This document shows, one piece after another, positions 1 through 21,376 of a stretch of 42,077 bases of DNA. The notes beneath the pieces are model-generated. The model was given only the letters and a program-made list of their open reading frames with translations. It was not told the origin of the DNA and made no database searches. The stretch lies in the NCBI GenBank assembly GCA_903911825.1, contig CAIWFB010000324.1:1-42077 (forward strand), given 5' to 3'. Source of the DNA: an uncultured Verrucomicrobia subdivision 3 bacterium. GTDB lineage: Bacteria; Verrucomicrobiota; Verrucomicrobiia; Limisphaerales; UBA11358. The translations under genes and the position numbers were made by a program. Within the stretch, counting starts at the first letter, position 1; each line of letters begins with the position of its first letter.

Positions 1-61
1 ACTGGGAATGGACAAAGAAACAACGAAACCATAAAATCAAACCAATGCTCGGACTAACAAA

Positions 62-172
62 TCAGTGGTCCAGAAAAGCGAACCCTCTCACGCGCGCAAA
101 ATATTTCAGCGATAACTCTTCGTCATCCACGTAGAGAATGGCGAATTTTTTGTAGTTGTAAGCGTTATCCAT
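62..172 (-). pseudogene. Truncated response-regulator receiver domain
   Basis: Starting at the ATG at 172, ten bases after the histidine kinase stop, the minus strand encodes 36 residues. They begin with a textbook receiver-domain first strand, FAILYVDDEELSLKYFAR, which carries the acidic pair (VDDEE) of CheY-like domains. After about residue 26 the similarity stops and a TGA follows at 62-64. The phosphoacceptor aspartate and the conserved lysine expected further on are absent, and bases 1-61 do not continue the fold in any frame I can read. The position directly behind a kinase gene suggests the cognate regulator. It is either a genuinely broken gene or an artefact of the sequence edge. Confidence 0.6.
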
Positions 173-181
173 GAGGTGACA

Positions 182-1555
182 TCAGTTGTTCGCCGGCAGA
201 TTTTCGGCGGCGGGAAATTCCAGTGTGAACTCGCAAAATTTCCCCGGCTCGGTGCGGACCGAAATTTTCCCCTTGGCGCTCACCACGAAACGGTAGCACA
301 GCGTCAATCCCAACCCCATGCCCGCGCCCACGTCTTTGGTGGTGAAAAACGGATCGTAAATCTTGTCCAGGTGTTCGGCGGCGATGCCGGGGCCGTTGTC
401 GTAAACGGTGAGAAACGTCACCCCGTTTTCCATTCGGCCGGAAATACGAATCGTGGGCTTTTCGTCGGTGAAGGTTTTGGTTTTCAGCGCATCCAGTGAG
501 TTTTGGAGCATCAAGCTCAAGGTGTTGATCAATTTATCCTTGTTCGCCCAGATCGTCAGATTCGCCGGCAAATCTTGCTGAAATTCGACGCCGTCTATTT
601 GCTCTTTGCTCAAAAAGCGCAGTTCATCCGCCACCGCTTCACTCAGTGAGATGCGGTCACTTTGTTCGGTGTCAGGATTGGTGAACGTCCGTAGACCGGA
701 GACGATTTTCTTCACGCGATCCACACCGGCTTCGACATCGTGCAAAATCTCGGCGTAATCCGCCTGCTGTTCCGGCGCGAGATATTTCCCCTTCTTGCGC
801 AAAGTAAATAAACCCGTCGTTGCAAAGTTCAGCGGATTGTTGATCTCGTGAATCATCCCCGCGCTCATGCGGCCCAGCGACGCTAGCTTCTCGGATTGGA
901 TGAGTTGGGCTTCGTTCGCCTTCAATTGCTCGAGGCTGATTTCGAGAGCGGTGCGGCTCTTGTCCAATTCCTGACGCAGCACAAATTCCGTGAAGCGTTG
1001 GCGCACTTGAAAATAAGTGCCCGCCACCACGATGATATCCATCAGCGCGATGAAGTAGTAATTCGTGAACAGTTCTTTGGTGGGTGGATAAATTCCGGCG
1101 TATAACCCCGCGCTGGTATACATCAACAGAACCAAAATGACGGCCAAGATACTTTCGCGCAGCGTCCAATGAAGCACTGCACCGACGGCCAGCAAAACGA
1201 GATTCAAAGCCATGTAGTAGCTGGATTCAAACCCATCGGAAACGGCGATCATGCCAGACAGAAAAATGGCAGGCAGGAGCGGCACGACTTCGCCGAGCCA
1301 GGAAAGATTCTGCTGGCCGCGCTTCGTGAAGAGCAGCGCCCAGATGATCAACGCGGTGGCGGAGCAGACCAGGCGCAACGCGAAAAATTCCCACAACATG
1401 CCGTGGTAAACAAAATAATCCACGGTGCTGCCCAGCGGCATGAGCGTGACGACGAGCGCGCAACCCACTTTGGTGTGATGCAGGCGTTGCTCCGCTTCGT
1501 AAGCCTTGAACGCGGCTACGGTATCGGCATTGACGTTGGCGAGAGCTTTATTCAC
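182..1555 (-). CDS. Six-helix membrane sensor histidine kinase
   Basis: A 457-residue two-component sensor kinase with a GTG start. Roughly six hydrophobic segments fill residues 27-185, with almost no periplasmic loop. A short coiled coil (about 190-225) leads into the dimerisation domain, with phosphoacceptor His236 in the motif MIHEINNPLNFA. The ATPase domain shows the N box (QNSLDALK, about 351), G1 (DNGPGI, 386), F box (DPFFTTK, 401) and G2 (GAGMGLGL, 411), so it should be active. A membrane-embedded sensor without a large extracellular domain is the layout of PhcS, LqsS and CqsS, which sense small lipid-like signals; that comparison is inference. Its start overlaps the methyltransferase gene by 8 bases, implying co-translation, and a broken receiver gene follows. 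The ligand is unknown. Confidence 0.9.
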   Translation of the reverse strand: MNKALANVNADTVAAFKAYEAEQRLHHTKVGCALVVTLMPLGSTVDYFVYHGMLWEFFALRLVCSATALIIWALLFTKRGQQNLSWLGEVVPLLPAIFLSGMIAVSDGFESSYYMALNLVLLAVGAVLHWTLRESILAVILVLLMYTSAGLYAGIYPPTKELFTNYYFIALMDIIVVAGTYFQVRQRFTEFVLRQELDKSRTALEISLEQLKANEAQLIQSEKLASLGRMSAGMIHEINNPLNFATTGLFTLRKKGKYLAPEQQADYAEILHDVEAGVDRVKKIVSGLRTFTNPDTEQSDRISLSEAVADELRFLSKEQIDGVEFQQDLPANLTIWANKDKLINTLSLMLQNSLDALKTKTFTDEKPTIRISGRMENGVTFLTVYDNGPGIAAEHLDKIYDPFFTTKDVGAGMGLGLTLCYRFVVSAKGKISVRTEPGKFCEFTLEFPAAENLPANN

Positions 1556-3053
1556 GTTCCGGTTTTTGCGCTTCGAAATAGATGTTCACGCCGGTTGGGT
1601 CGGATTTGACCCCGCACCAATCTTCGGGAGCGGCGTCTGGTTTTAGTGTCATCAAATCCGTAGCGCGGCGATAAAACAAATGCCATTCCATGATGTGGTC
1701 CATCGTGATCCGGCGGGGATTGTAAACGTCCACATTCGTGATGACCAGTGTGCCGCTCGGTCTAAGCCAGTCGTAAAAAATGCCGTTCAGCCGACGACAA
1801 ACGCTGTCGCTCAAGTAGTCATACAAACCTGCGCAATAAACCAAATCATACTCACCCGTGATGGCGCCGTCTTTTCCGCGACTGGCATCTTTCACGATTT
1901 GCTGCACCGATTTTTTGACGAAAGTGAATTGGGTGCGGTGGGCGAATTTGCTTTGCGCCGTGGTCACGATGGCGCGGCAATGGGCCAAGCTTTCTTCGCT
2001 GAAATCCAGCAAGGTGAACTCGACGTTGTCCGCCAGCGAACTTTCCTGCATGAACCGCTGCACTTCGTGAACCGGGCCGCAACCGATATTCAGGATGCGG
2101 GCGGGGCGACCTTGATTCATGGCGCGCAACGTCGCGGCTTCGAGATAGCGCACGAGACTTTTGATGCGATTACGATGTGCCTCGGCGGGCGGCTGTTGCA
2201 CGAACCAGAGATTGATGAGCTTGGCGTAGAGCGACGCGCCTTCCAACGGGTCGCGCAGCATCATGTTCACCATTTCGTAATCACCGGCATAGCCCAGCGG
2301 CTTGGTGAAACAGCGATAGAGAAACGGCGAACACAACAGCAGCGGATGCAACTGCCGACGCGCGAAGGCTTGATGCGCGGGCAAGCGGTCGGGCTCGATG
2401 ACGCGCAGACAATTCTCAAATTTCTCAAACAGATTCGTCAGCAGCGGCAAGATTTGCGGGCTGAGTTCGCCAGCAATTTTCTGCTCCAGAGCCGGGCGCT
2501 CCACGGCGGAGGCGGCGCGGATGCCGAGCTCCACTTGCTCTAGCCACAGGCGCAGATCCGTGAGAAACGATTGCATGTCGCCGACGATGACTTTGAACTC
2601 TGCGCCGATCTGATACAGCTTCTGCCATTCGCCGAGAAAGTTTTTGAATTCTTGCGCCACTTGGCCAGCGGCGGGTGGTTTGGTGAAATCCAAACCGGTC
2701 CAATTCGCTTCATCCAGCGAAGCGTCGCACACGGTGGTGGCGCCGGCTTCCATCAGATTGCTGACTACGGCGCGGCCAGAATAAACGGTGCGTTCCTGAA
2801 AAATGATTTTGAAATTTTCCAGCGTCTCCGTCAGGCGCGGCGCGAGGCTGGAGTTATAAAGTTCCAGCACCACCGTGTGTCGGTTCAAGTGCAGCGGCGT
2901 GCCGCGCACGGTGAGGCCGTCAGCGGATAGGAAAATGACTTGGGTTTCCGCGAGGGGTAGCGCCGACGCAGGCCGCGGCTTAGTCGTCGGGTTGGCAGTT
3001 CCCTCCGCGCCTTGGCCGTGGTTAGGTTTGTAGCTGGTAACCACCGGACTCAT
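1548..3053 (-). CDS. SAM-dependent methyltransferase, 3-OH-palmitate methyl ester (PhcB-like) family
   Basis: A 501-residue two-part protein. Residues about 37-120 form a beta-rich, PilZ-like region (HLNRHTVVLELYNSS). The middle carries the family signature KPLGYAGDYEMVN (251-263). The C-terminal half is a Rossmann-type methyltransferase: motif I ILNIGCGP (321-328), acidic residue Asp350 ending strand 2, and YDLVYCAGLYDYL (402-414). These features, including the MEWHLFYR stretch, match proteins annotated as extracellular-factor (3-hydroxypalmitic acid methyl ester) biosynthesis proteins, whose prototype PhcB makes a quorum signal in Ralstonia. The assignment rests on recognised motifs, and the substrate here is not proven. 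The gene lies between a FadL channel (51 bases upstream) and a histidine kinase (8-base overlap), which fits production and sensing of a fatty-acid-derived signal. Confidence 0.8.
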   Translation of the reverse strand: MSPVVTSYKPNHGQGAEGTANPTTKPRPASALPLAETQVIFLSADGLTVRGTPLHLNRHTVVLELYNSSLAPRLTETLENFKIIFQERTVYSGRAVVSNLMEAGATTVCDASLDEANWTGLDFTKPPAAGQVAQEFKNFLGEWQKLYQIGAEFKVIVGDMQSFLTDLRLWLEQVELGIRAASAVERPALEQKIAGELSPQILPLLTNLFEKFENCLRVIEPDRLPAHQAFARRQLHPLLLCSPFLYRCFTKPLGYAGDYEMVNMMLRDPLEGASLYAKLINLWFVQQPPAEAHRNRIKSLVRYLEAATLRAMNQGRPARILNIGCGPVHEVQRFMQESSLADNVEFTLLDFSEESLAHCRAIVTTAQSKFAHRTQFTFVKKSVQQIVKDASRGKDGAITGEYDLVYCAGLYDYLSDSVCRRLNGIFYDWLRPSGTLVITNVDVYNPRRITMDHIMEWHLFYRRATDLMTLKPDAAPEDWCGVKSDPTGVNIYFEAQKPERE

Positions 3054-3104
3054 TCGCGGTGAGGATGGAATATCCCGTCCGCCAAAACAACGCGTTTGTT
3101 GCGT

Positions 3105-4373
3105 TCAGAAGCGCAAGCCGCACGTCACAAAAATGGCGTGGCTGATGAATTCATAAGTGCCATCCGCCGTTTGCCCAGCGAATTGCCCCGGCGTGGACGA
3201 CGGCGTGCTCCCCGTTACGGTGTGCGGCGGGCCGTAACCAAATTGATAGGCGATATCGAGGCTGTAGCGTTTACCGGTGAAGCCCGTGCCAATGCTGATG
3301 AAATGCCGGTCCAGATCCGCAGCGAGCGGCGAGTAATACGCATCGGGCACGGAATTTTGGTCAAACACATAGCCCGCGCTGACGTGCCAGCCGTTGTCGA
3401 AATAGCGTGTCACGCCCAGTGAATACATCCAGCTCGCGCGCCAATTCAGCGTCACGGGAATGTTTTGTTGAATGCCCGAGGGCGGCGCGGGATTTTGGTA
3501 GATGGTGGTTTTGCCCACGCTGCTCCAATCCGTGAAGTCCGCATCTGCTTCAATATTCCATTTTGGCGTGGGCCGATACGAAATGCCGAAAGTGGTCGTC
3601 AGTGGAAACGTTAAAGCCATTTTGGCCGAGCGCGAGCCGGGCGGAAAGGCACCTTCCTCGACGAAGTCCGTGTTGCCGCTGAACGTGAAATCATTGGCCC
3701 CGCGCATCGTCGCGCCGAACGATAATTTTTCAATGGGCTGCCACAAGAGGCCAGCGTTGTAGCCCACGCTGAAGCCGTCGCCGTGAAAGGTAAAATTATT
3801 CGGCGGGTTGACCCCTTTCAAAATTCCCTGTTTCAGCAACATCCGCGCGTAGTCCACGCTCACGCCCGCACCGAGGGAAAGCGTGTCGGTCAATTTCACG
3901 GCCACCACCGGACTGAAGCGCAAATAGGTGAGCGAACTGCGTTTCGCCACGGAACGAAACCGCGTGTCGTCCGGCCAACTGATCGCGCCGCCGTAAGGCG
4001 CGTAAAGTCCCACGCCGAAGCTCACGGGAATTGCTTTCAACGTATGCGTCGCAAAAAATTGCGGCACGGCGGCGTAATTTTTGGCGATGCCGTAGGTGTT
4101 ACCGCTGTTGGGTTGACCTTCCGGCGGACGAAAGCCGGGTTGCAGATTGATGCCGTAGATCCCGCTGCGCACGGTGGTGTTGGTCAGTTGCGTGATGCCC
4201 GCCGGGTTGTAGTAAACAGCCGAGGCGTTGTCGGCGGTGGCCACAAACGCTTCGCCGCGTGCTGTCGCTGCCGCGTCTTGATCGGCCAAGCGAAAGCCGT
4301 TGGCCGCCGCTGTTCCGACCGTGAGGGCCAGCAGCAGTGCGGCGAGGAATGGAATTGTCTGCGGTTGCTTCAT
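3105..4373 (-). CDS. OmpP1/FadL-family outer-membrane hydrophobic-compound channel
   Basis: A 422-residue outer-membrane beta-barrel. A signal peptide (MKQPQTIPFLAALLLALTVG, cleaved after TAAA or nearby) precedes the FadL hatch start NGFRLADQDAAATARGEAFV and the family motif VYYNPAGIT (residues about 54-62). The remainder alternates short polar and aromatic strands and ends in CGLRF, the C-terminal aromatic residue needed for barrel assembly. FadL proteins pass long-chain fatty acids and other hydrophobic molecules through the outer membrane by lateral diffusion; in Sinorhizobium a FadL protein also admits long-chain acyl-homoserine lactones. It is the first gene of the minus-strand cluster with the methyltransferase and kinase, so carriage of a lipid signal is a reasonable inference; general fatty-acid uptake is the alternative. 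Confidence 0.9.
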   Translation of the reverse strand: MKQPQTIPFLAALLLALTVGTAAANGFRLADQDAAATARGEAFVATADNASAVYYNPAGITQLTNTTVRSGIYGINLQPGFRPPEGQPNSGNTYGIAKNYAAVPQFFATHTLKAIPVSFGVGLYAPYGGAISWPDDTRFRSVAKRSSLTYLRFSPVVAVKLTDTLSLGAGVSVDYARMLLKQGILKGVNPPNNFTFHGDGFSVGYNAGLLWQPIEKLSFGATMRGANDFTFSGNTDFVEEGAFPPGSRSAKMALTFPLTTTFGISYRPTPKWNIEADADFTDWSSVGKTTIYQNPAPPSGIQQNIPVTLNWRASWMYSLGVTRYFDNGWHVSAGYVFDQNSVPDAYYSPLAADLDRHFISIGTGFTGKRYSLDIAYQFGYGPPHTVTGSTPSSTPGQFAGQTADGTYEFISHAIFVTCGLRF

Positions 4374-4491
4374 GGATGTTTTATCCTGACTGCGCCCAGA
4401 GATTAACCATCGTCTCGCAGCGTGTCAGCAAATTCTCGGCGGCGGGCGGGTCTCAACTTTACAAACCATCGCGCTGGGCTAAAGTGGCACG

Positions 4492-5606
4492 GTGAAAGGC
4501 TTTTTCAGATTCACAACGGTGGTTTTTGTCGCGTTCGCTGGTCTGGCGCACGCGGGGTTTTCTTCGCTCTACGTTTTTGGCGATGGCACTTCGGCGACGA
4601 CTAATTTTTTTCTTTCCGCCAATTACTACGGCGGGACGCGCTATTCCAACGGCCGCTGCTGGGTCGAGGTGCTGGCGCAGCGGCAGGGCTAGGCGCTACC
4701 TCGTTGACCAGCACCAATTGGAGTTACTCGACGAATAACCGTTCGTTTTACGGGCATTATAGTTATTTGCTGGTCACTAATGTTAACAACTTCGTGGCGC
4801 CGCCAAACGCTTCGAATTGTCTCTTCATCGTCTGGGTCGCCAATGCTGATTTCGTGGAAGACATCGGCAATCTTGGTGGCAGTATTCCGGGCAATTTGGC
4901 GGCGTGGACTAATTCGATCAATCAACACATCACGAATCATTTCCGAGCCATCACCAATCTGTATGCCAAAGGGATGCGCACGCTTATTGCCCCCAATGCG
5001 GTTGACCTCACTAAAACTCCCCAATACAACAGCTACACGCCGTCGGGCCGGGCCTTCATTCGTCAGCGCATCGTTGAATTCAACAACGCCTATTCGAACC
5101 GGCTCAATCAAATCAAAGTCAGTAGTCCGGCGTTGAAGATTTATACGCCTGATGTTTTTGCCTTGCTAGATGACGTCGAAGCGAATGCCGGCCAATACGG
5201 TCTGACCAATGTGCTCGATAATACGACCAATATCACAAGCGCGCTGGAAAACGCCGCTCTGTCACCGTGGGCCATCAACGGGCCTGGCACGAATTACGTC
5301 TGGTGGGGGCCCATTGCTCCCTCCGCTCGCTTTCACGCCGTCATTGCCGACACGGTGCAACAAATGATTTCGCCCGTGGATGTGGGCGGTTTGGTGCCCG
5401 TGAATACCAGCAACCAGTTGCAATTGGTCAACGCGCCGGTAGGGATGAATGGCCAAGTCCTATTCGCCACCAATCTGGCGGCGGCTACTTGGCTGACGAA
5501 TTCCACTTTCAGCACGCTGACGGTGACGCAGTCCGTCTTCGTGAATGCCACCAACTCCCAGCGTTTTTATCGCCTGAAGTTTCCGTGGCAGTGGACTTGG
5601 CCGTGA
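4492..5606 (+). pseudogene. Frameshifted SGNH/GDSL-like secreted protein lacking catalytic residues
   Basis: A GTG start at 4492 opens a signal peptide (cut after LAHA, residue 21) and the SGNH block I region LYVFGDGTSATT. The frame ends at a TAG at 4690. The continuation, GATSLTSTNWSYSTNN onward, is one base out of register from about 4689, and one missing C in GGC(C)TAGG would restore a single protein of about 371 residues. All three expected catalytic positions differ from the family: the nucleophile serine of GDS is Gly (4585-4587), and in the C-terminal W-D-x-x-H-P block the Asp is Gly (5307-5309) and the His is Ala (5316-5318). The C-terminus carries the beta module ending FYRLKFPWQWTWP. 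It is a dead enzyme, a decayed gene or a binding protein; a sequencing error could explain the frameshift but not the substitutions. Confidence 0.75.
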
Positions 5607-5610
5607 CAGC

Positions 5611-6663
5611 TTACGCCGCTTTCGCCAGCGTCTCGTAACCCCAACGCAACATGCGTTCGGTGGTTTCCCAGCCCACGCAGGAATCTGTGATGCTCACACC
5701 GTAGCGGAGTTCGTTCAGCGCTTTGGGAATCGGCTGATTACCTTCGCTCAAGTGACTTTCCACCATCAGGCCGATGAGCGACTTCGTGCCGCCGACCCGT
5801 TGTTCGATGACGCTGCGCCAGACTTCTTCCTGCTTGGCGAATTTCTTTTCCGAATTCGCGTGGCTGCAATCCACCATGAGCACCGGCGGCAATTTTTCCG
5901 ACGCCAACTTGCCTTCCGCCGTCTGGATGCTCGCGGCGTCGTAATTCGTCATCGCGCGGCCGCCGCGGAGGACGACGTGCGCGTTCGGGTTGCCGTTCGT
6001 GCGGACGATGCTCGTCACGCCTTCTTCGTTCACGCCGAGAAAACTGTGGGAATTGCGCGTGGCGCCCATGGCATCAATGGCCACTTGCAAGCTGCCGTCC
6101 GTGCTGTTCTTCAAGCCCACGGGCATGGAGAGACCGCTGGCCATCTCGCGATGCGTCTGCGATTCCGTGGTGCGCGCGCCGATGGCCGCCCAACTGATGA
6201 GGTCCGCGATGTATTGCGGCACGATGGGATCGAGAAATTCCGTGGCCGCCGGCAAGCCGAGGGCATTGATTTGCAGCAATAATTTCCGCGCCGTTTTCAA
6301 GCCCGCTTCGATGTCCTGCGAACCGTCCAGATGCGGGTCGTTGATCAAGCCCTTCCAGCCGATGGTGGTGCGGGGTTTCTCAAAATAGACGCGCATGACG
6401 ATTTCCAAGCGGTCTGAAAATTCCTTTTGCAGCTTGCTCAAGCGTTGGGCGTATTCCAAAGCGCTCTTTTCATCGTGAATGGAGCACGGCCCCACCACCA
6501 CGAGCAAGCGCGGGTCTTGTTGGTTCAAGATCCGGATGATGCGCTCCCGGGCTTCCGCCACGGTGGCATTCACCGCCTCGCTCACCGGCGCGATCGCCTT
6601 GATGGCGCGCGGCGAGAGCAAAGGCACAATTTCTTTAACGTGTAAATCCTGCGTCCGATACAT
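5611..6663 (-). CDS. aroG: 3-deoxy-7-phosphoheptulonate synthase (DAHP synthase, class I alpha)
   Basis: A 350-residue enzyme condensing phosphoenolpyruvate with erythrose 4-phosphate, the first step of aromatic amino-acid synthesis. It aligns from end to end with E. coli AroG as I know it: [67 protein letters not shown] and [11 protein letters not shown], including the metal-binding Cys, His and Glu regions. The ATG at 6663 ([12 protein letters not shown]) was chosen because it matches the family N-terminus; an upstream TTG at 6684 would add only seven residues. The aroF, aroG and aroH isozymes, which differ in feedback control, cannot be told apart here. It is convergent with the SGNH-like gene, 4 bases away, leaving no room for a separate terminator. 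Confidence 0.95.
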
Positions 6664-6672
6664 AGTCGGTTC

Positions 6673-6678
6673 AGTATA
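6673..6678 (-). promoter_or_regulatory. Possible -10 box for the DAHP synthase gene
   Basis: On the minus strand TATACT lies 9 bases before the ATG at 6663. If used, transcription would begin within a few bases of the start codon, giving a nearly leaderless message, consistent with the absence of a Shine-Dalgarno site. The -35 region (about CTTTCC) is poor, so this is weak. Confidence 0.3.
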
Positions 6679-6821
6679 GGGCAAAAAACGGGCGCGGAAA
6701 GCCGAAAGCTTGAAGGCACCAGCAGCCGAGGGATTGCCGGAAGGGGATAAGCAGGGTTATTCATGAACTAAACCGCGCCAGGGTTGGGACTGAAACCTTA
6801 TTGAGCAGCCAGAAGGAAATT

Positions 6822-7658
6822 TCAATCCGGGTCAATCCGCACGGGAATCCAGTCAATTTCCAATTTTTCGGCCTGACAAAAGTCGTAAAACCGTTTGGAC
6901 GCAACGAAGGTTCCCGCCTTGCCGCCATTTGGCTCATGGGTCCGCGCCAAGTCAAACGGTCCGAGCTTAGCCAAATCACTGCTTCGGTAGCGCATTTCAG
7001 CAGGCGTAAAACCGTCTTTCACAATGCAGGCATGGCTTTTCCCATCTTCATAAAGACCGCCAATTCCATCAATCAAATGCAACCCCGGAGACAATCGCGG
7101 CATCCGCAAGTTGGTGACTAATTCCCAATACTGCTCGCGAACTTGTTTGGCCTTATGCCCCATTACCTTCGCCGGGAAAAACTGGATTCCCTTCAGGTCG
7201 GCTTGCTCCATGAGAAGTTTGATGGAGTGGGTGACGGCGTAGGTGGTTTTCCCCGGTTCATGAACCCAGCCTAGTTGCGGCGGTTGCCCCTCAAAATCCG
7301 AAGTGACGATCAATAGGCCATCAGATGTCCGTCGCTTAACTGTTTCCAGTGAAATTTTGGCAACAGGTTCAAATAGGTTAACCAAACCAAAATCAATACT
7401 TTCATAGATGCGTTCTTTTTCTAGCCTAAACCTGTAACCATTCTGACTCTCGTTTTCACTTTCGTCAGATAGTCGCGGAAAGAGCCCAAAGTCTTTTAGG
7501 CATTTTAAGATCTTGCTCAAACGCTCATCATTTTCATTGAGAATACAATGGAAACTCCGCCCTCTGTCGCCTTCTGGATAAATTTTGAGAAGGGTTTTAA
7601 GTGCCTTTTGTTCCAAGTGAACCTTTGGAATCAATCCAACATGAACTTGTATTCTCAT
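6822..7658 (-). CDS. Hypothetical protein, possibly immunity-like
   Basis: A 278-residue soluble protein without signal peptide or membrane segment. I chose the ATG at 7658 (MRIQVHVGLIPK) because AAAGGAA precedes it at good spacing; an in-frame ATG at 7685 with GAGGG further upstream is the alternative. The C-terminal third (DLARTHEPNGGKAGTFVASKR, then FYDFCQAEKLEIDWIPVRID) loosely resembles Imm11 and double-CXXCG immunity-like proteins found near toxins in myxobacteria, but the CXXCG pairs are missing and no toxin gene is adjacent. Local base composition is more A/T-rich than the neighbours, with many Ser, Asn and Glu codons, which could mean recent acquisition. No function is assigned. Confidence 0.65.
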   Translation of the reverse strand: MRIQVHVGLIPKVHLEQKALKTLLKIYPEGDRGRSFHCILNENDERLSKILKCLKDFGLFPRLSDESENESQNGYRFRLEKERIYESIDFGLVNLFEPVAKISLETVKRRTSDGLLIVTSDFEGQPPQLGWVHEPGKTTYAVTHSIKLLMEQADLKGIQFFPAKVMGHKAKQVREQYWELVTNLRMPRLSPGLHLIDGIGGLYEDGKSHACIVKDGFTPAEMRYRSSDLAKLGPFDLARTHEPNGGKAGTFVASKRFYDFCQAEKLEIDWIPVRIDPD

Positions 7659-7826
7659 TATTGAATTCCTTTCGTTGCTAACCATTTTTAGTCAACCCTC
7701 AAAGGGCTGGTCGTGGCGCCGATTTAACCACCCAGAAAACGGGCGTCAAGACTGGGCCTGACCTCTTTTGATCTGCGGGTAAAACCAAGCGGGAATATCC
7801 AGCGGACCAACCAAGGACTTAACGCC

Positions 7827-18041: not shown

Positions 18042-18992
18042 TCAGACCTTCGTCCGGAAATACGCAATCGTGTCCGTCAAACCATCCGCCAGCTTCACTT
18101 GCGGCTCCCACTTGAGAATTTTTTTAGCTTTGGCGATGTCAGGCTTGCGTTGCTTAGGGTCGTCTTGTGGCAAGGGTTTGTGGACGATTTTGCTCTTGGA
18201 GCCGGTGGCTTGGATGATCTGCTCGGCGAATTGGAGCATGGTCATTTCGGTTGGGTTGCCGATGTTCACGGGCAAATCGTAATCGCTCATCATCAGGCGA
18301 TAAATGCCTTCGATCAGGTCAGAGTAATAGCAGAAGCTGCGCGTCTGGGTGCCTTTGCCGAAAACAGTGATGGCTTTATTCTTCAACGCTTGGCTAATGA
18401 AAGCGGGCACCACGCGGCCATCATTCAGGCGCATGCGCGGGCCGTAGGTATTGAAGATGCGGACGATGCGCGTCTCGACTTTATGCTCGCGGTGATAGGC
18501 CATCGTGAGTGCTTCGGCGAAGCGTTTGGCTTCGTCGTAGCAACCACGCGGCCCGATGGTGTTGACGTTGCCCCAGTATTCTTCCGGCTGCGGATGGAGC
18601 AGGGGATCTCCGTAAATTTCCGAGGTGGACGCGACCAGAAAGCGGGCGCCTTTATTCTTGGCGAGGCCCAAGGCTTTGTGCGTGCCGAGTGAACCGACCT
18701 TCATTGTTTGAATAGGGATTTGCAGATAATCAATCGGGCTGGCAGGCGAAGCGAAATGCCAGACGTAGTCCACCGGGCCATCGAGGAAAATAAATTCGGT
18801 GACGTCCTGCTGGATGAATTTGAAATTCGGATTGCCGCCGAGGTGAACGATGTTGTCCACGCTGCCGGTGACGAAATTATCAATGCCGATGACTTTGTGG
18901 CCGCGCTTCAGCAACAGATCGGTGAGGTGTGAGCCAAGAAAACCGGCCGCGCCGGTGACGACGGAAGTAAGTTGTTTCTGCTTTTTTTTCAT
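18042..18992 (-). CDS. UDP-glucuronate decarboxylase (UDP-xylose synthase)
   Basis: A 316-residue extended short-chain dehydrogenase. The NAD-binding motif is [11 protein letters not shown] (13-23). The active site shows STSEIYGDP and YDEAK (Tyr-x-x-x-Lys). The stretches SPIDYLQIP and [10 protein letters not shown]-like [10 protein letters not shown], and the C-terminal [13 protein letters not shown], match UXS-type decarboxylases that turn UDP-glucuronate into UDP-xylose. It lies at the downstream end of the exopolysaccharide block, so a pentose building block for the glycan is the likely role. A related dTDP-glucose 4,6-dehydratase is less likely given the SPIDY motif. Confidence 0.9.
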
Positions 18993-19105
18993 CGGTGATA
19001 AATTTTAAAAATTGCCGCTGCGTTCGCGAGCCTGAATCGTATGCAAAGCTCACATTGATTCAACGTCTAAAGCGGTTGGAGGGGATTGTAGCAACCTTGC
19101 CTCGC

Positions 19106-19960
19106 TTAAAAATCTTCCGGCCCGGTGCGTTGCGGGACAAAGTCTCTGGCGCGTTGCTGCGCTTCCGCCAACTGCTGCGGGGTCAATTGCGCGGCGAATT
19201 GTTGGAGCGTGGCGCCGTTGCGGTGGTTGATGTTGAACTTGTCCTTGGCGAGCAGCAGCCACTTGTAGCCTTCGACCGGGTCTTGCGCGACGCCGTTACC
19301 GGTAAAATACATATCGCCCAGCCACGTCGCAGAATCAGCAACGCCCTGATTTGCTGCCGTCGTCAGCCAAGCCGCCGCCTTTTGCGGATCTTTGTCCGCG
19401 CCATCACCCCACAACAACCGCAGGCCGAGACCGTGCTGCGATTCGGCCTGTCCCTGTTCCGCCGCCTTGGCATACCACTCGATTGCTTTCGCAGAATCTT
19501 TTTCCACACCTTGCCCCAGCACATACATGACGCCGATGCGATGTTGCGCGACGGCATCGCCGGACTCGGCGAGCGGGAGCAGTAGCTTCATGGCTTTTTT
19601 GTAATCACCACGTGCCCATGCGTCGCTGCCGCGATCCAAGGTGATCTCCATCAAGTTCGAGGCAAGCGCCGTTTGCGCGGATTGTTGCTGGGCGCGAAGG
19701 GCCTGCAATTGCGCCATGATTTCCGCCGGGCCGACCAGTCGGCCGTCGGCCGTAAAACCATTCAGTGAATCAGCCGCACGTTTCCGCGTTTCTTCTGCTT
19801 TGCGCAGCCCGTCCACTTCCTCCCGCAACGTCGCCACTTCCTGTCGCAGCAGGCCGATTTCATCAGCCGATTTTTCGCCCGTCGATTTTTTGCCAATATA
19901 AATGACGGTCGCAGCCAGTGCGACAGCCAGACTTAGAGCCAACAGGACGCTTGTTCTCAT
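19106..19960 (-). CDS. Sel1-repeat protein with membrane anchor and coiled coil
   Basis: A 284-residue envelope protein. An N-terminal hydrophobic helix (residues 3-23) acts as uncleaved signal or anchor, followed by a coiled coil (about 33-65, EIGLLRQEVATLREEVDGL). Three to four Sel1 repeats run from about 130 to 235 (AVAQHRIGVMYVLGQGVEKD; AESQHGLGLRLLWGDGADKD; ADSATWLGDMYFTGNGVAQD). Such repeats form helical scaffolds for protein contacts. The start is backed by a GAGGTC Shine-Dalgarno site that overlaps the stop region of the sugar-transferase gene 12 bases upstream, so the two are coupled. It may organise polysaccharide machinery, by position only. Confidence 0.88.
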   Translation of the reverse strand: MRTSVLLALSLAVALAATVIYIGKKSTGEKSADEIGLLRQEVATLREEVDGLRKAEETRKRAADSLNGFTADGRLVGPAEIMAQLQALRAQQQSAQTALASNLMEITLDRGSDAWARGDYKKAMKLLLPLAESGDAVAQHRIGVMYVLGQGVEKDSAKAIEWYAKAAEQGQAESQHGLGLRLLWGDGADKDPQKAAAWLTTAANQGVADSATWLGDMYFTGNGVAQDPVEGYKWLLLAKDKFNINHRNGATLQQFAAQLTPQQLAEAQQRARDFVPQRTGPEDF

Positions 19961-19972
19961 AATTTTATGACC

Positions 19973-21376
19973 TCACTTCGCGCCGGTGCCAGAAAAGACG
20001 GCCGGAATCGTGCGGAACAGAATGATGATGTCGAGCCAGATGGACCAATTATCAATGTATTCTAAGTCGAGTCGCACCCATTCTTTGAAGTCTGAGATTT
20101 TATTGCGCCCGCTGACTTGCCACAGGCAGGTGAGGCCGGGTTTGACGCTCAAGCGGCGGCGGTGCGCGAGGTCGTTGAAGCGTTTCACTTCATCCACGGG
20201 CAGCGGACGTGGCCCAACGAGGCTCATCTCACCGCGCAGGACGTTGAAGAGTTGGGGTAGTTCATCGAGGCTGTATTTGCGGAGAAATTTGCCGATGGGC
20301 GTGATGCGCGGGTCGTTGGTGACTTTGAAAACGGGGCCGGACATCTCATTCATCGCGGCGAGTTCATGTTGGAACTGCTCGGCGTTGGTCATCATGGTGC
20401 GAAACTTAAAGATGTTGAAGGGGGAACCGTTTAGTCCTGAGCGCTGTTGTCGGAAAAATATCGGGCCGGGGGAGGTCAGTTTGATAAGTAAGGCAACGAG
20501 CAGCATGGGCAACGCCGCGACGAGGAGCATGAAGATGGCGCCGAAAAAATCGATCAACATCTTGGCGAGCATCTGCCAGGAAGTTTCCGGGGTGGAGCGG
20601 AAGACGATCAGCGGGTGGCCAAACATTTCGTCCAAGCTGGCGCGGGCGATTTGCGTGGCAAAAAAATCGGCGGCGAGCCAGGCTTCGACGCCTTCGATTT
20701 CACACAACTGGATGACGCTTTCGACGCGTTCGAAGTTGGCGTTTTTGGCACTGATGAGCACGCCGCTGACGGAATGTTCGTGGAGGGCTTCAATCAAATC
20801 AGCCGTCTGGCCGGCCAACAGATTAAATTCCGCGATGACGGTGATGTCGCCACCGCCGCGATCCTCCAACAGTTTGCGTAGCCGGACAATTTCCGGCGCT
20901 GTGCCGGCGATGATGATCCGGCGTTTGTATTGCGCATGTGACATCTGGCTCCGCAAGGCTGCCCGTAGTAATTCTTCTTTGGCCCAGACCAAACCGAAGC
21001 TGATGAAGGCAAAAACGATCGTTACTCCGCGCGGCGTCGTGTTGGCTGATTTGAAAGTGAACAGCAGCAAGACCAGCCCGATGGTGACAATGAGGCAGCC
21101 CCGCAGCAGCGGCCAGAGCATGGCGGTGCGGGAGCTAACCACGGGACGGTTGTAGAACCCCTGTGATTCCAAGACGAGCGGGGCGGCAGGCACCAGCGCA
21201 AAGTAGAGCCAGACAACCTGATCGAAGGATTCCAAAGGGATGACATCCAAGCCCAGCCACGATTGGAGCCAACCGCTACAGCGCACGACATAGGCTAACC
21301 AAAAGCTGGCCGCGAAAAGGCACGCGTCCGTCAATTGGTTCACCTGCGTTCGGATTTGGCGATCCCGTTGCAGCAT
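19973..21376 (-). CDS. Polyprenyl-phosphate sugar-1-phosphate transferase (initiating glycosyltransferase)
   Basis: A 467-residue member of the bacterial sugar transferase family (WbaP/EpsE type). Four N-terminal helices (about 16-130) and a central CoA-binding-like nucleotide domain (RRIIIAGTAPEIVRLRKLL) precede a fifth hydrophobic segment (about 268-292). The catalytic C-terminal domain shows KLTSPGPIFFRQQRSGLNG, FKFRTMMTNAEQ, RKYSLDELPQLFNVLRGEMS, LVGPRPLPVDEV and KPGLTCLWQVSGRN. It loads the first sugar phosphate onto undecaprenyl phosphate and so starts exopolysaccharide synthesis. It lies 40 bases after epsI; exosortase loci often carry such an enzyme. Confidence 0.95.
   Translation of the reverse strand: MLQRDRQIRTQVNQLTDACLFAASFWLAYVVRCSGWLQSWLGLDVIPLESFDQVVWLYFALVPAAPLVLESQGFYNRPVVSSRTAMLWPLLRGCLIVTIGLVLLLFTFKSANTTPRGVTIVFAFISFGLVWAKEELLRAALRSQMSHAQYKRRIIIAGTAPEIVRLRKLLEDRGGGDITVIAEFNLLAGQTADLIEALHEHSVSGVLISAKNANFERVESVIQLCEIEGVEAWLAADFFATQIARASLDEMFGHPLIVFRSTPETSWQMLAKMLIDFFGAIFMLLVAALPMLLVALLIKLTSPGPIFFRQQRSGLNGSPFNIFKFRTMMTNAEQFQHELAAMNEMSGPVFKVTNDPRITPIGKFLRKYSLDELPQLFNVLRGEMSLVGPRPLPVDEVKRFNDLAHRRRLSVKPGLTCLWQVSGRNKISDFKEWVRLDLEYIDNWSIWLDIIILFRTIPAVFSGTGAK

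What the first reader, a model, noticed from the sequence alone, without database searches (positions are those of the whole stretch)
62..4373. Candidate fatty-acid-ester signalling module: FadL, PhcB-like methyltransferase, six-helix kinase, receiver
Seen: four adjacent minus-strand genes, two of them overlapping, encoding a FadL channel, a methyltransferase with the KPxGYAGDYEMV and YCAGLYDYL signatures, a kinase with six membrane helices and no sensor loop, and a receiver start. Known: PhcB makes 3-hydroxypalmitate methyl ester and PhcS is its sensor kinase in Ralstonia; FadL can import hydrophobic signals. Inferred: the unit makes, imports and senses a lipid signal. The added FadL and a location in Verrucomicrobiota would extend the phc-type arrangement.
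Basis: partly seen in the sequence, partly recalled or inferred. Interest (0 to 1): 0.75.

Follow-up and report, generated by a model that had tools for sequence, protein, structure and literature searches.

The report
Probable lipid-signal operon in Verrucomicrobiota
This is a conserved gene set in which a methyltransferase that probably makes a fatty-acid-type signal sits beside the membrane kinase that probably detects it, resembling the Ralstonia phc cell-to-cell signalling operon but widespread in Verrucomicrobiota, where I found no report of it; in this genome the relay gene is broken by a transposable element.

Summary
The genes are real. Minus strand: FadL porin (3105-4373), 501-aa methyltransferase (1548-3053), six-helix histidine kinase (182-1555), then a receiver cut after about 27 codons by an IS3-like insertion; its remainder lies on contig C335 with a 4-bp duplication. 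The core methyltransferase-kinase-receiver order is highly conserved: kinase in 108/108 and receiver in 89/90 related loci with enough flank. The kinase's membrane sensor domain occurs almost only with this methyltransferase in 97 genomes and co-diverges with its catalytic domain (r=0.51) but hardly with the rest of the pathway. A Paraburkholderia plasmid carries homologues of the core in phcBSRQ-like order; published functional residues of PhcB (R22), PhcS (H230) and PhcQ (R154) map onto it within 3 residues. In another verrucomicrobial order a KS-AT-DH-ER-KR-ACP megasynthase directly precedes the methyltransferase in 7 genomes, tying it to acyl chains. FadL lies within about 8 kb in 72/101 loci, usually one of 1-2 copies per genome. 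The methyltransferase has a PilZ-like domain. Best reading: a phc-type lipid autoinducer system. Chemistry, signalling and direct identity with Ralstonia PhcB are untested; FadL import is inferred; in this genome the system is probably damaged.

The parts
3105..4373 (-). FadL/TodX-family outer-membrane channel, 422 aa, 51 bp upstream of the methyltransferase
   Evidence: Pfam PF03349 E=1.9e-52; FadL within about 8 kb of the methyltransferase in 72 of 101 related loci; 1-3 FadL matches per FadL-positive genome
1548..3053 (-). PhcB-like class I SAM methyltransferase, 501 aa, putative signal synthase
   Evidence: Pfam methyltransferase models; 63 of 97 genomes have a convincing match; 38.9% identity over 91% to the Paraburkholderia graminis plasmid enzyme; AlphaFold model pLDDT 84.6, methyltransferase fold
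2715..2945 (-). N-terminal PilZ-like beta domain of the methyltransferase (residues 37-113), without the RxxxR and [DN]xSxxG motifs in the stretch tested
   Evidence: domain model pLDDT 90.5; leading structural matches are PilZ domains, Z 11.1 to MrkH; motif scan found none
182..1555 (-). Membrane sensor histidine kinase, PhcS-like, 457 aa, GTG start; H-box His at residue 236
   Evidence: HisKA and HATPase_c; kinase directly downstream in 108/108 loci; His position 236 versus 233 in P. graminis and published 230 in PhcS
941..1555 (-). Six-helix membrane sensor domain (residues 1-205) specific to methyltransferase-linked kinases
   Evidence: profile finds module kinases in the loci and 142 bits in the P. 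graminis kinase; in 61 of 97 genomes, 60 of them with the methyltransferase
91..172 (-). First about 27 codons of the receiver plus kinase-like (PhcR/PhcQ-like) regulator, interrupted
   Evidence: remainder at G000:C335:21421-22515(-), 62% identical to the relative used as query; followed on C335 by a receiver-containing kinase gene at 18392-20398(-)
1..90 (-). End of an IS3-like insertion element inserted in the receiver gene (4-bp duplication CGCG at 91-94)
   Evidence: same sequence at about 20 places, mostly contig ends, of G000; opposite inverted-repeat end on C335
4492..5606 (+). GDSL-like secreted esterase gene, divergent from fadL, frameshifted near 4687; possible accessory part
   Evidence: tblastn in two frames against L105 and L041; PF00657 in intact relatives; paired with FadL in relatives

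Best explanation
The core (methyltransferase, six-helix kinase, receiver-kinase regulator) is a phc-type cell-to-cell signalling operon. The methyltransferase transfers a methyl group from SAM to an acyl-chain product, most likely giving a hydrophobic fatty-acid methyl ester or a similar methylated lipid. The lipid leaves the cell and, in this lineage, probably crosses the outer membrane back through the neighbouring FadL channel. It is detected within the inner membrane by the kinase's dedicated six-helix domain, and phosphoryl groups pass to the receiver-kinase protein and a further receiver-containing kinase. Shown: gene order, conservation, near-exclusive pairing of sensor and enzyme, co-divergence, domain make-up, and the insertion in this genome. 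Inferred: the chemistry, export and import, phosphotransfer, and the cellular response. In this genome the relay gene is broken by an insertion element, so the system is probably impaired here while intact in relatives.
For: Order conserved: kinase 108/108, receiver 89/90 loci, and kinase plus receiver in 15 of 16 loci from outside the order. Sensor domain found in 61/97 genomes, 60 with the methyltransferase (Fisher 2.7e-21). Distances of the catalytic domain correlate with the sensor (r=0.51 over 93 loci, 0.68 in short-form loci; partial 0.50 and 0.64), but with kinase core and receiver only 0.10 and 0.13 overall (0.46 and 0.41 in short-form loci). P. graminis operon methyltransferase-kinase-receiver-receiver with homology in each part. 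Published PhcB R22, PhcS H230, PhcQ R154 correspond to P. graminis R22, H233, R157. KS-AT-DH-ER-KR-ACP megasynthase 5-80 bp upstream of the methyltransferase in 7 genomes of four families. FadL: 29/29 methyltransferase-positive genomes have it, 7 of 11 negative ones lack it (Fisher 1.8e-5). FadL takes up long-chain AHL signals in rhizobia (PMC9938287).
Against: No chemistry. FadL is not found nearby in 29 of 101 loci and is often paired with an esterase. No LysR PhcA-type output gene was looked for genome-wide. Receiver interrupted and esterase frameshifted in this genome. Related genomes are not independent, so the Fisher and Mantel values overstate significance. Co-divergence could also reflect direct enzyme-kinase contact.
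Confidence: 0.68

Rival explanations
1. The methyltransferase acts on the kinase or another protein, in the manner of CheR, and its PilZ-like domain docks on the kinase; the pair is an internal regulatory switch and no diffusible signal is made.
For: Weak CheR similarity (E=0.022); PilZ fold in the N-domain, one structural row being MapZ with CheR1; co-divergence of enzyme and sensor would also follow from contact.
Against: A dedicated acyl megasynthase precedes the enzyme in 7 genomes; the co-divergence with the membrane domain is stronger for the catalytic domain than for the PilZ domain (r 0.51 versus 0.26); homologous operon resembles phcBSRQ.
Confidence: 0.13
2. A lipid-scavenging locus: FadL and the GDSL esterase take up environmental lipids, the kinase senses lipids from outside, and the methyltransferase modifies or detoxifies them.
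For: FadL is paired with a GDSL esterase in about 20 relatives, sometimes away from the methyltransferase.
Against: The core without FadL or esterase is conserved in many loci and in P. graminis; the megasynthase-linked operons make a chain and do not merely import one.
Confidence: 0.1
3. A methylated membrane or secreted secondary lipid whose biosynthesis is feedback-controlled by the kinase, without cell-to-cell signalling.
For: Polyketide-synthase-like enzyme upstream in one order.
Against: No megasynthase beside the core in most loci; the conserved core has one enzyme and two or three signalling proteins; resemblance to an established quorum-sensing operon.
Confidence: 0.09

Closest known systems
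Ralstonia phcBSRQ quorum-sensing operon (PhcB methyltransferase, PhcS kinase, PhcR receiver-kinase, PhcQ receiver)
   Same: Gene order; kinase with the phosphoacceptor His at nearly the same position (236 versus 230); receiver-plus-kinase regulator; an Arg in the RGT motif corresponding, through P. graminis, to PhcB R22.
   Different: Verrucomicrobiota host; FadL and GDSL esterase neighbours; the kinase is often a roughly 900-aa form with a second kinase unit; an extra receiver-containing kinase downstream in part of the loci; PKS-linked version in another order; PhcA not seen nearby; product unknown.
Paraburkholderia graminis plasmid pPHS1_P operon CUJ91_RS33675-33690
   Same: Full-length methyltransferase 38.9% identical, homologous sensor (142 bits), two homologous receivers (183 and 104 bits).
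   Different: Receiver proteins without a recognised C-terminal kinase domain; no FadL annotated within 9 kb.
Lqs/Cqs systems (LqsA-LqsS, CqsA-CqsS)
   Same: Synthase beside a membrane kinase with little periplasmic sensor (kinase topology from general knowledge).
   Different: Synthase is a PLP-dependent enzyme, unrelated to a SAM methyltransferase; the signal is an alpha-hydroxyketone (general knowledge).
[quoted passage not shown]
   Same: FadL channel handling a hydrophobic signal.
   Different: Different signal class; no FadL-synthase-sensor gene cluster was reported in the passages read.

Membership tests
phcBSRQ-type quorum-sensing operon | PhcB-family methyltransferase, tested as full-length homology to a Burkholderiaceae enzyme in such an operon | tested here: met
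   38.9% over 91% to the P. graminis protein, which is nested among the verrucomicrobial enzymes in the tree; Ralstonia PhcB itself not available
phcBSRQ-type quorum-sensing operon | PhcS-type membrane histidine kinase directly downstream | tested here: met
   108/108 loci; sensor profile 142 bits in the P. graminis kinase
phcBSRQ-type quorum-sensing operon | PhcR/PhcQ-type receiver regulators next in order | tested here: met
   89/90 loci; receiver homology to both P. graminis regulators; interrupted in this genome
phcBSRQ-type quorum-sensing operon | Product is a 3-hydroxy fatty-acid methyl ester acting as autoinducer | not testable with these tools
   needs enzyme assay and mass spectrometry
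phcBSRQ-type quorum-sensing operon | Output through the LysR regulator PhcA | not tested
   no PhcA reference sequence at hand; no genome-wide search made
phcBSRQ-type quorum-sensing operon | Direct sequence comparison with Ralstonia PhcB, PhcS, PhcR, PhcQ | not testable with these tools
   no Ralstonia chromosome was reachable; the centre of another genome search must be a genome handle; only published residue positions were mapped
FadL outer-membrane transporter family | PF03349 match over the curated cut-off | tested here: met
   178.6 bits versus cut-off 29.7
PilZ domain, c-di-GMP-binding | PilZ beta-barrel fold | tested here: met
   Z up to 11.1, leading rows PilZ domains
PilZ domain, c-di-GMP-binding | RxxxR and [DN]xSxxG ligand motifs | tested here: not met
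   absent in all 27 aligned rows in the tested stretch; so it is not claimed as a c-di-GMP receptor

The most novel reading that the evidence does not exclude
An old, widespread lipid-pheromone system of Verrucomicrobiota: a PilZ-methyltransferase makes an acyl signal (from general fatty-acid synthesis here, from a dedicated fully reducing PKS in a sister order), FadL returns it across the outer membrane, and a co-evolving six-helix kinase reads it. Some Burkholderiaceae phc-type operons, such as the P. graminis plasmid one, would be transfers from this pool.
Probability: 0.4. Interest if true: 0.82.

Novelty: new variant of a known kind. Interest (0 to 1): 0.68.

Why it matters
The published survey of the phc cluster covered Proteobacteria and found it mainly in Betaproteobacteria (PMC10653808), and my full-text searches found no paper joining PhcB and Verrucomicrobiota. 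A conserved synthase-receptor pair across a phylum that is common in soils and waters would give it a testable cell-to-cell signal, offer a large natural set for working out how such lipid signals are recognised, and suggest a FadL route for a hydrophobic signal. The PKS-linked version predicts a chain made for the signal alone, and the PilZ-like domain gives a structural setting for the known PhcB R22C mutation.

Tried and rejected
Looking for Ralstonia homologues on plasmids (none listed). PDB sequence search of the methyltransferase: nothing significant with the single sequence, and with the profile only E about 0.005 to generic methyltransferases. Fold search of the whole methyltransferase gave a generic methyltransferase fold; best row 3ocj, an uncharacterised Bordetella protein, so no substrate hint. 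The idea that the receiver was merely cut by the window edge was rejected: insertion element. AroG upstream and pyruvate kinase downstream are treated as a fixed chromosomal location, not as part of the system. Searches for papers on FadL, methyltransferase, kinase and quorum sensing in Verrucomicrobiota gave none.

Full report
OBSERVATION. The window's first 4.4 kb hold, on the minus strand, a FadL-family channel (3105-4373), a 501-aa methyltransferase (1548-3053) and a histidine kinase (182-1555) with tight spacing: 51 bp between fadL and the methyltransferase, 8 bp overlap with the kinase, 9 bp to the next start. The quoted motifs are present. The receiver start at 172 is genuine but ends after about 27 codons in a 90-bp sequence found at about 20 places, mostly contig ends, of the same genome. 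The remaining receiver gene lies on contig C335, preceded by the opposite end of the element; the flanks share a 4-bp CGCG, and the reading KYFAR-AFG seen in relatives is split exactly there. This fits an IS3-family insertion; the family is my inference from the ends and an OrfA-like start. On C335 a receiver-containing kinase follows. Relatives named place the window in Verrucomicrobiota, near 'subdivision 3'/Limisphaerales.

CONSERVATION. 64 of 97 genomes match the methyltransferase, 63 of them convincingly (G073 is weak). In 121 distinct loci the kinase follows directly in 108 of 108 with enough flank, the receiver protein in 89 of 90, and FadL lies within about 8 kb in 72 of 101, adjacent on either strand (loci; one of the 121 is the Paraburkholderia locus). 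Outside the order the enzyme is sparse (16 of 287 other sampled genomes), yet 15 of those 16 loci again have the kinase and a receiver next. The module sits near aroG and pyk in several relatives, suggesting long vertical residence.

SYNTHASE-RECEPTOR SIGNS. A profile of the kinase's membrane domain (residues 1-205) matches only methyltransferase-linked kinases in the fetched loci, apart from two short ORFs near contig ends that I take for pieces of the same gene. In 97 genomes it is found in 61, of which 60 have the methyltransferase; several mismatches look like contig breaks or frameshifts. Across 93 loci, distances of the catalytic domain correlate with the sensor (r=0.51; 0.68 among short-form loci; partial 0.50 and 0.64 given kinase core and receiver), against 0.10 and 0.13 for kinase core and receiver overall (0.46 and 0.41 in short-form loci). 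Shared ancestry inflates such values, but the contrast between domains of one kinase is informative.

RELATION TO PHC. A Paraburkholderia graminis plasmid carries methyltransferase (38.9% over 91%), kinase, 134-aa receiver and 344-aa receiver. Its kinase membrane domain scores 142 bits with the verrucomicrobial profile and its receivers 104 and 183 bits. Published functional residues of the Ralstonia proteins, PhcB R22 and PhcQ R154 (PMC6989110) and PhcS H230 (PMC11960443), correspond to P. graminis R22, R157 and H233; the window has the RGT arginine at 50 and the kinase His at 236. In the tree the P. graminis enzyme is nested among verrucomicrobial ones (99/94 with L210, L212, L213), while short orphan methyltransferases from Rhizobium, Deinococcus and others sit apart on long branches (the placement of long branches is unsure). 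PhcR is a receiver-plus-kinase protein and PhcQ a receiver protein (PMC8578825), comparable to this module. The cited survey found phc mainly in Betaproteobacteria but looked only at Proteobacteria. I could not obtain Ralstonia sequences.

CHEMISTRY HINTS. In seven genomes of four families of another order, a roughly 2100-aa KS-AT-DH-ER-KR-ACP enzyme ends 5-80 bp before the methyltransferase, and kinase and receivers follow; FadL lies divergent from it in at least two. The megasynthases are as little as 38% identical between families, so the linkage has been kept over long divergence. The architecture predicts a reduced acyl chain, which supports a lipid substrate. In the window's clade general fatty-acid synthesis would have to supply the chain (inference).

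FADL AND ESTERASE. Of 40 genomes, all 29 with the methyltransferase have FadL and 7 of 11 without it lack FadL; most FadL-positive genomes have one or two matches, and by coordinates about 24 of the 29 have one within about 5 kb of the methyltransferase. The window's FadL belongs to a divergent FadL-GDSL esterase pair seen in about 20 relatives, sometimes away from the methyltransferase. So FadL could serve signal import, signal turnover with the esterase, or lipid scavenging. Import of long-chain AHLs by FadL is documented in rhizobia. In the window the esterase gene is frameshifted near 4687, possibly a sequencing error.

STRUCTURE. The methyltransferase model (pLDDT 84.6) has an N-terminal beta domain, a helical region and a methyltransferase fold. 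The N-domain modelled alone is PilZ-like (Z 11.1 to MrkH; leading rows PilZ domains) but lacks the usual c-di-GMP motifs. The arginine matching PhcB R22 lies in it.

CONCLUSION. The core is best read as a phc-type lipid-signal operon, conserved in Verrucomicrobiota and probably impaired in this genome. Ester identity, export, import and output remain to be shown.

Noticed in passing
window 1-94 and G000:C335:22515-22648: An IS3-like element present at about 20 places, mostly contig ends, fragments this assembly and interrupts the receiver gene with a 4-bp duplication.
   Followed up: yes
window 4492-5606 (+): A GDSL esterase gene divergent from fadL carries a frameshift near 4687; relatives have it intact and paired with FadL.
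   Followed up: partly
L212 1267-7536, L233 5123-11452, L234 4386-10646, L235 8901-15290, L236 3374-9694, L238 3049-9324, L239 2378-8710: Single-module fully reducing PKS/FAS-like megasynthase apparently in one operon with the PhcB-like methyltransferase, sensor kinase and receivers in another verrucomicrobial order.
   Followed up: partly
L120 (Pseudanabaena plasmid) 4959-7578: A shorter related methyltransferase beside a kinase with weak similarity to the same sensor domain (33 bits) and a response regulator on a cyanobacterial plasmid.
   Followed up: no
L223 4506-8344: A short 319-aa methyltransferase followed by a kinase with the same sensor domain and a receiver, in a genome (G295) that also has the full-length module (L204): possible second signal.
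   Followed up: no
window 6822-7685 (-) and L005 (G000:C169 end): A gene with weak Imm11 similarity, and by eye a similar C-terminal sequence beside another copy of the insertion element.
   Followed up: no
L218 (Deinococcus plasmid) 1392-4750: A short related methyltransferase annotated as CheR near a fatty acid desaturase gene.
   Followed up: no
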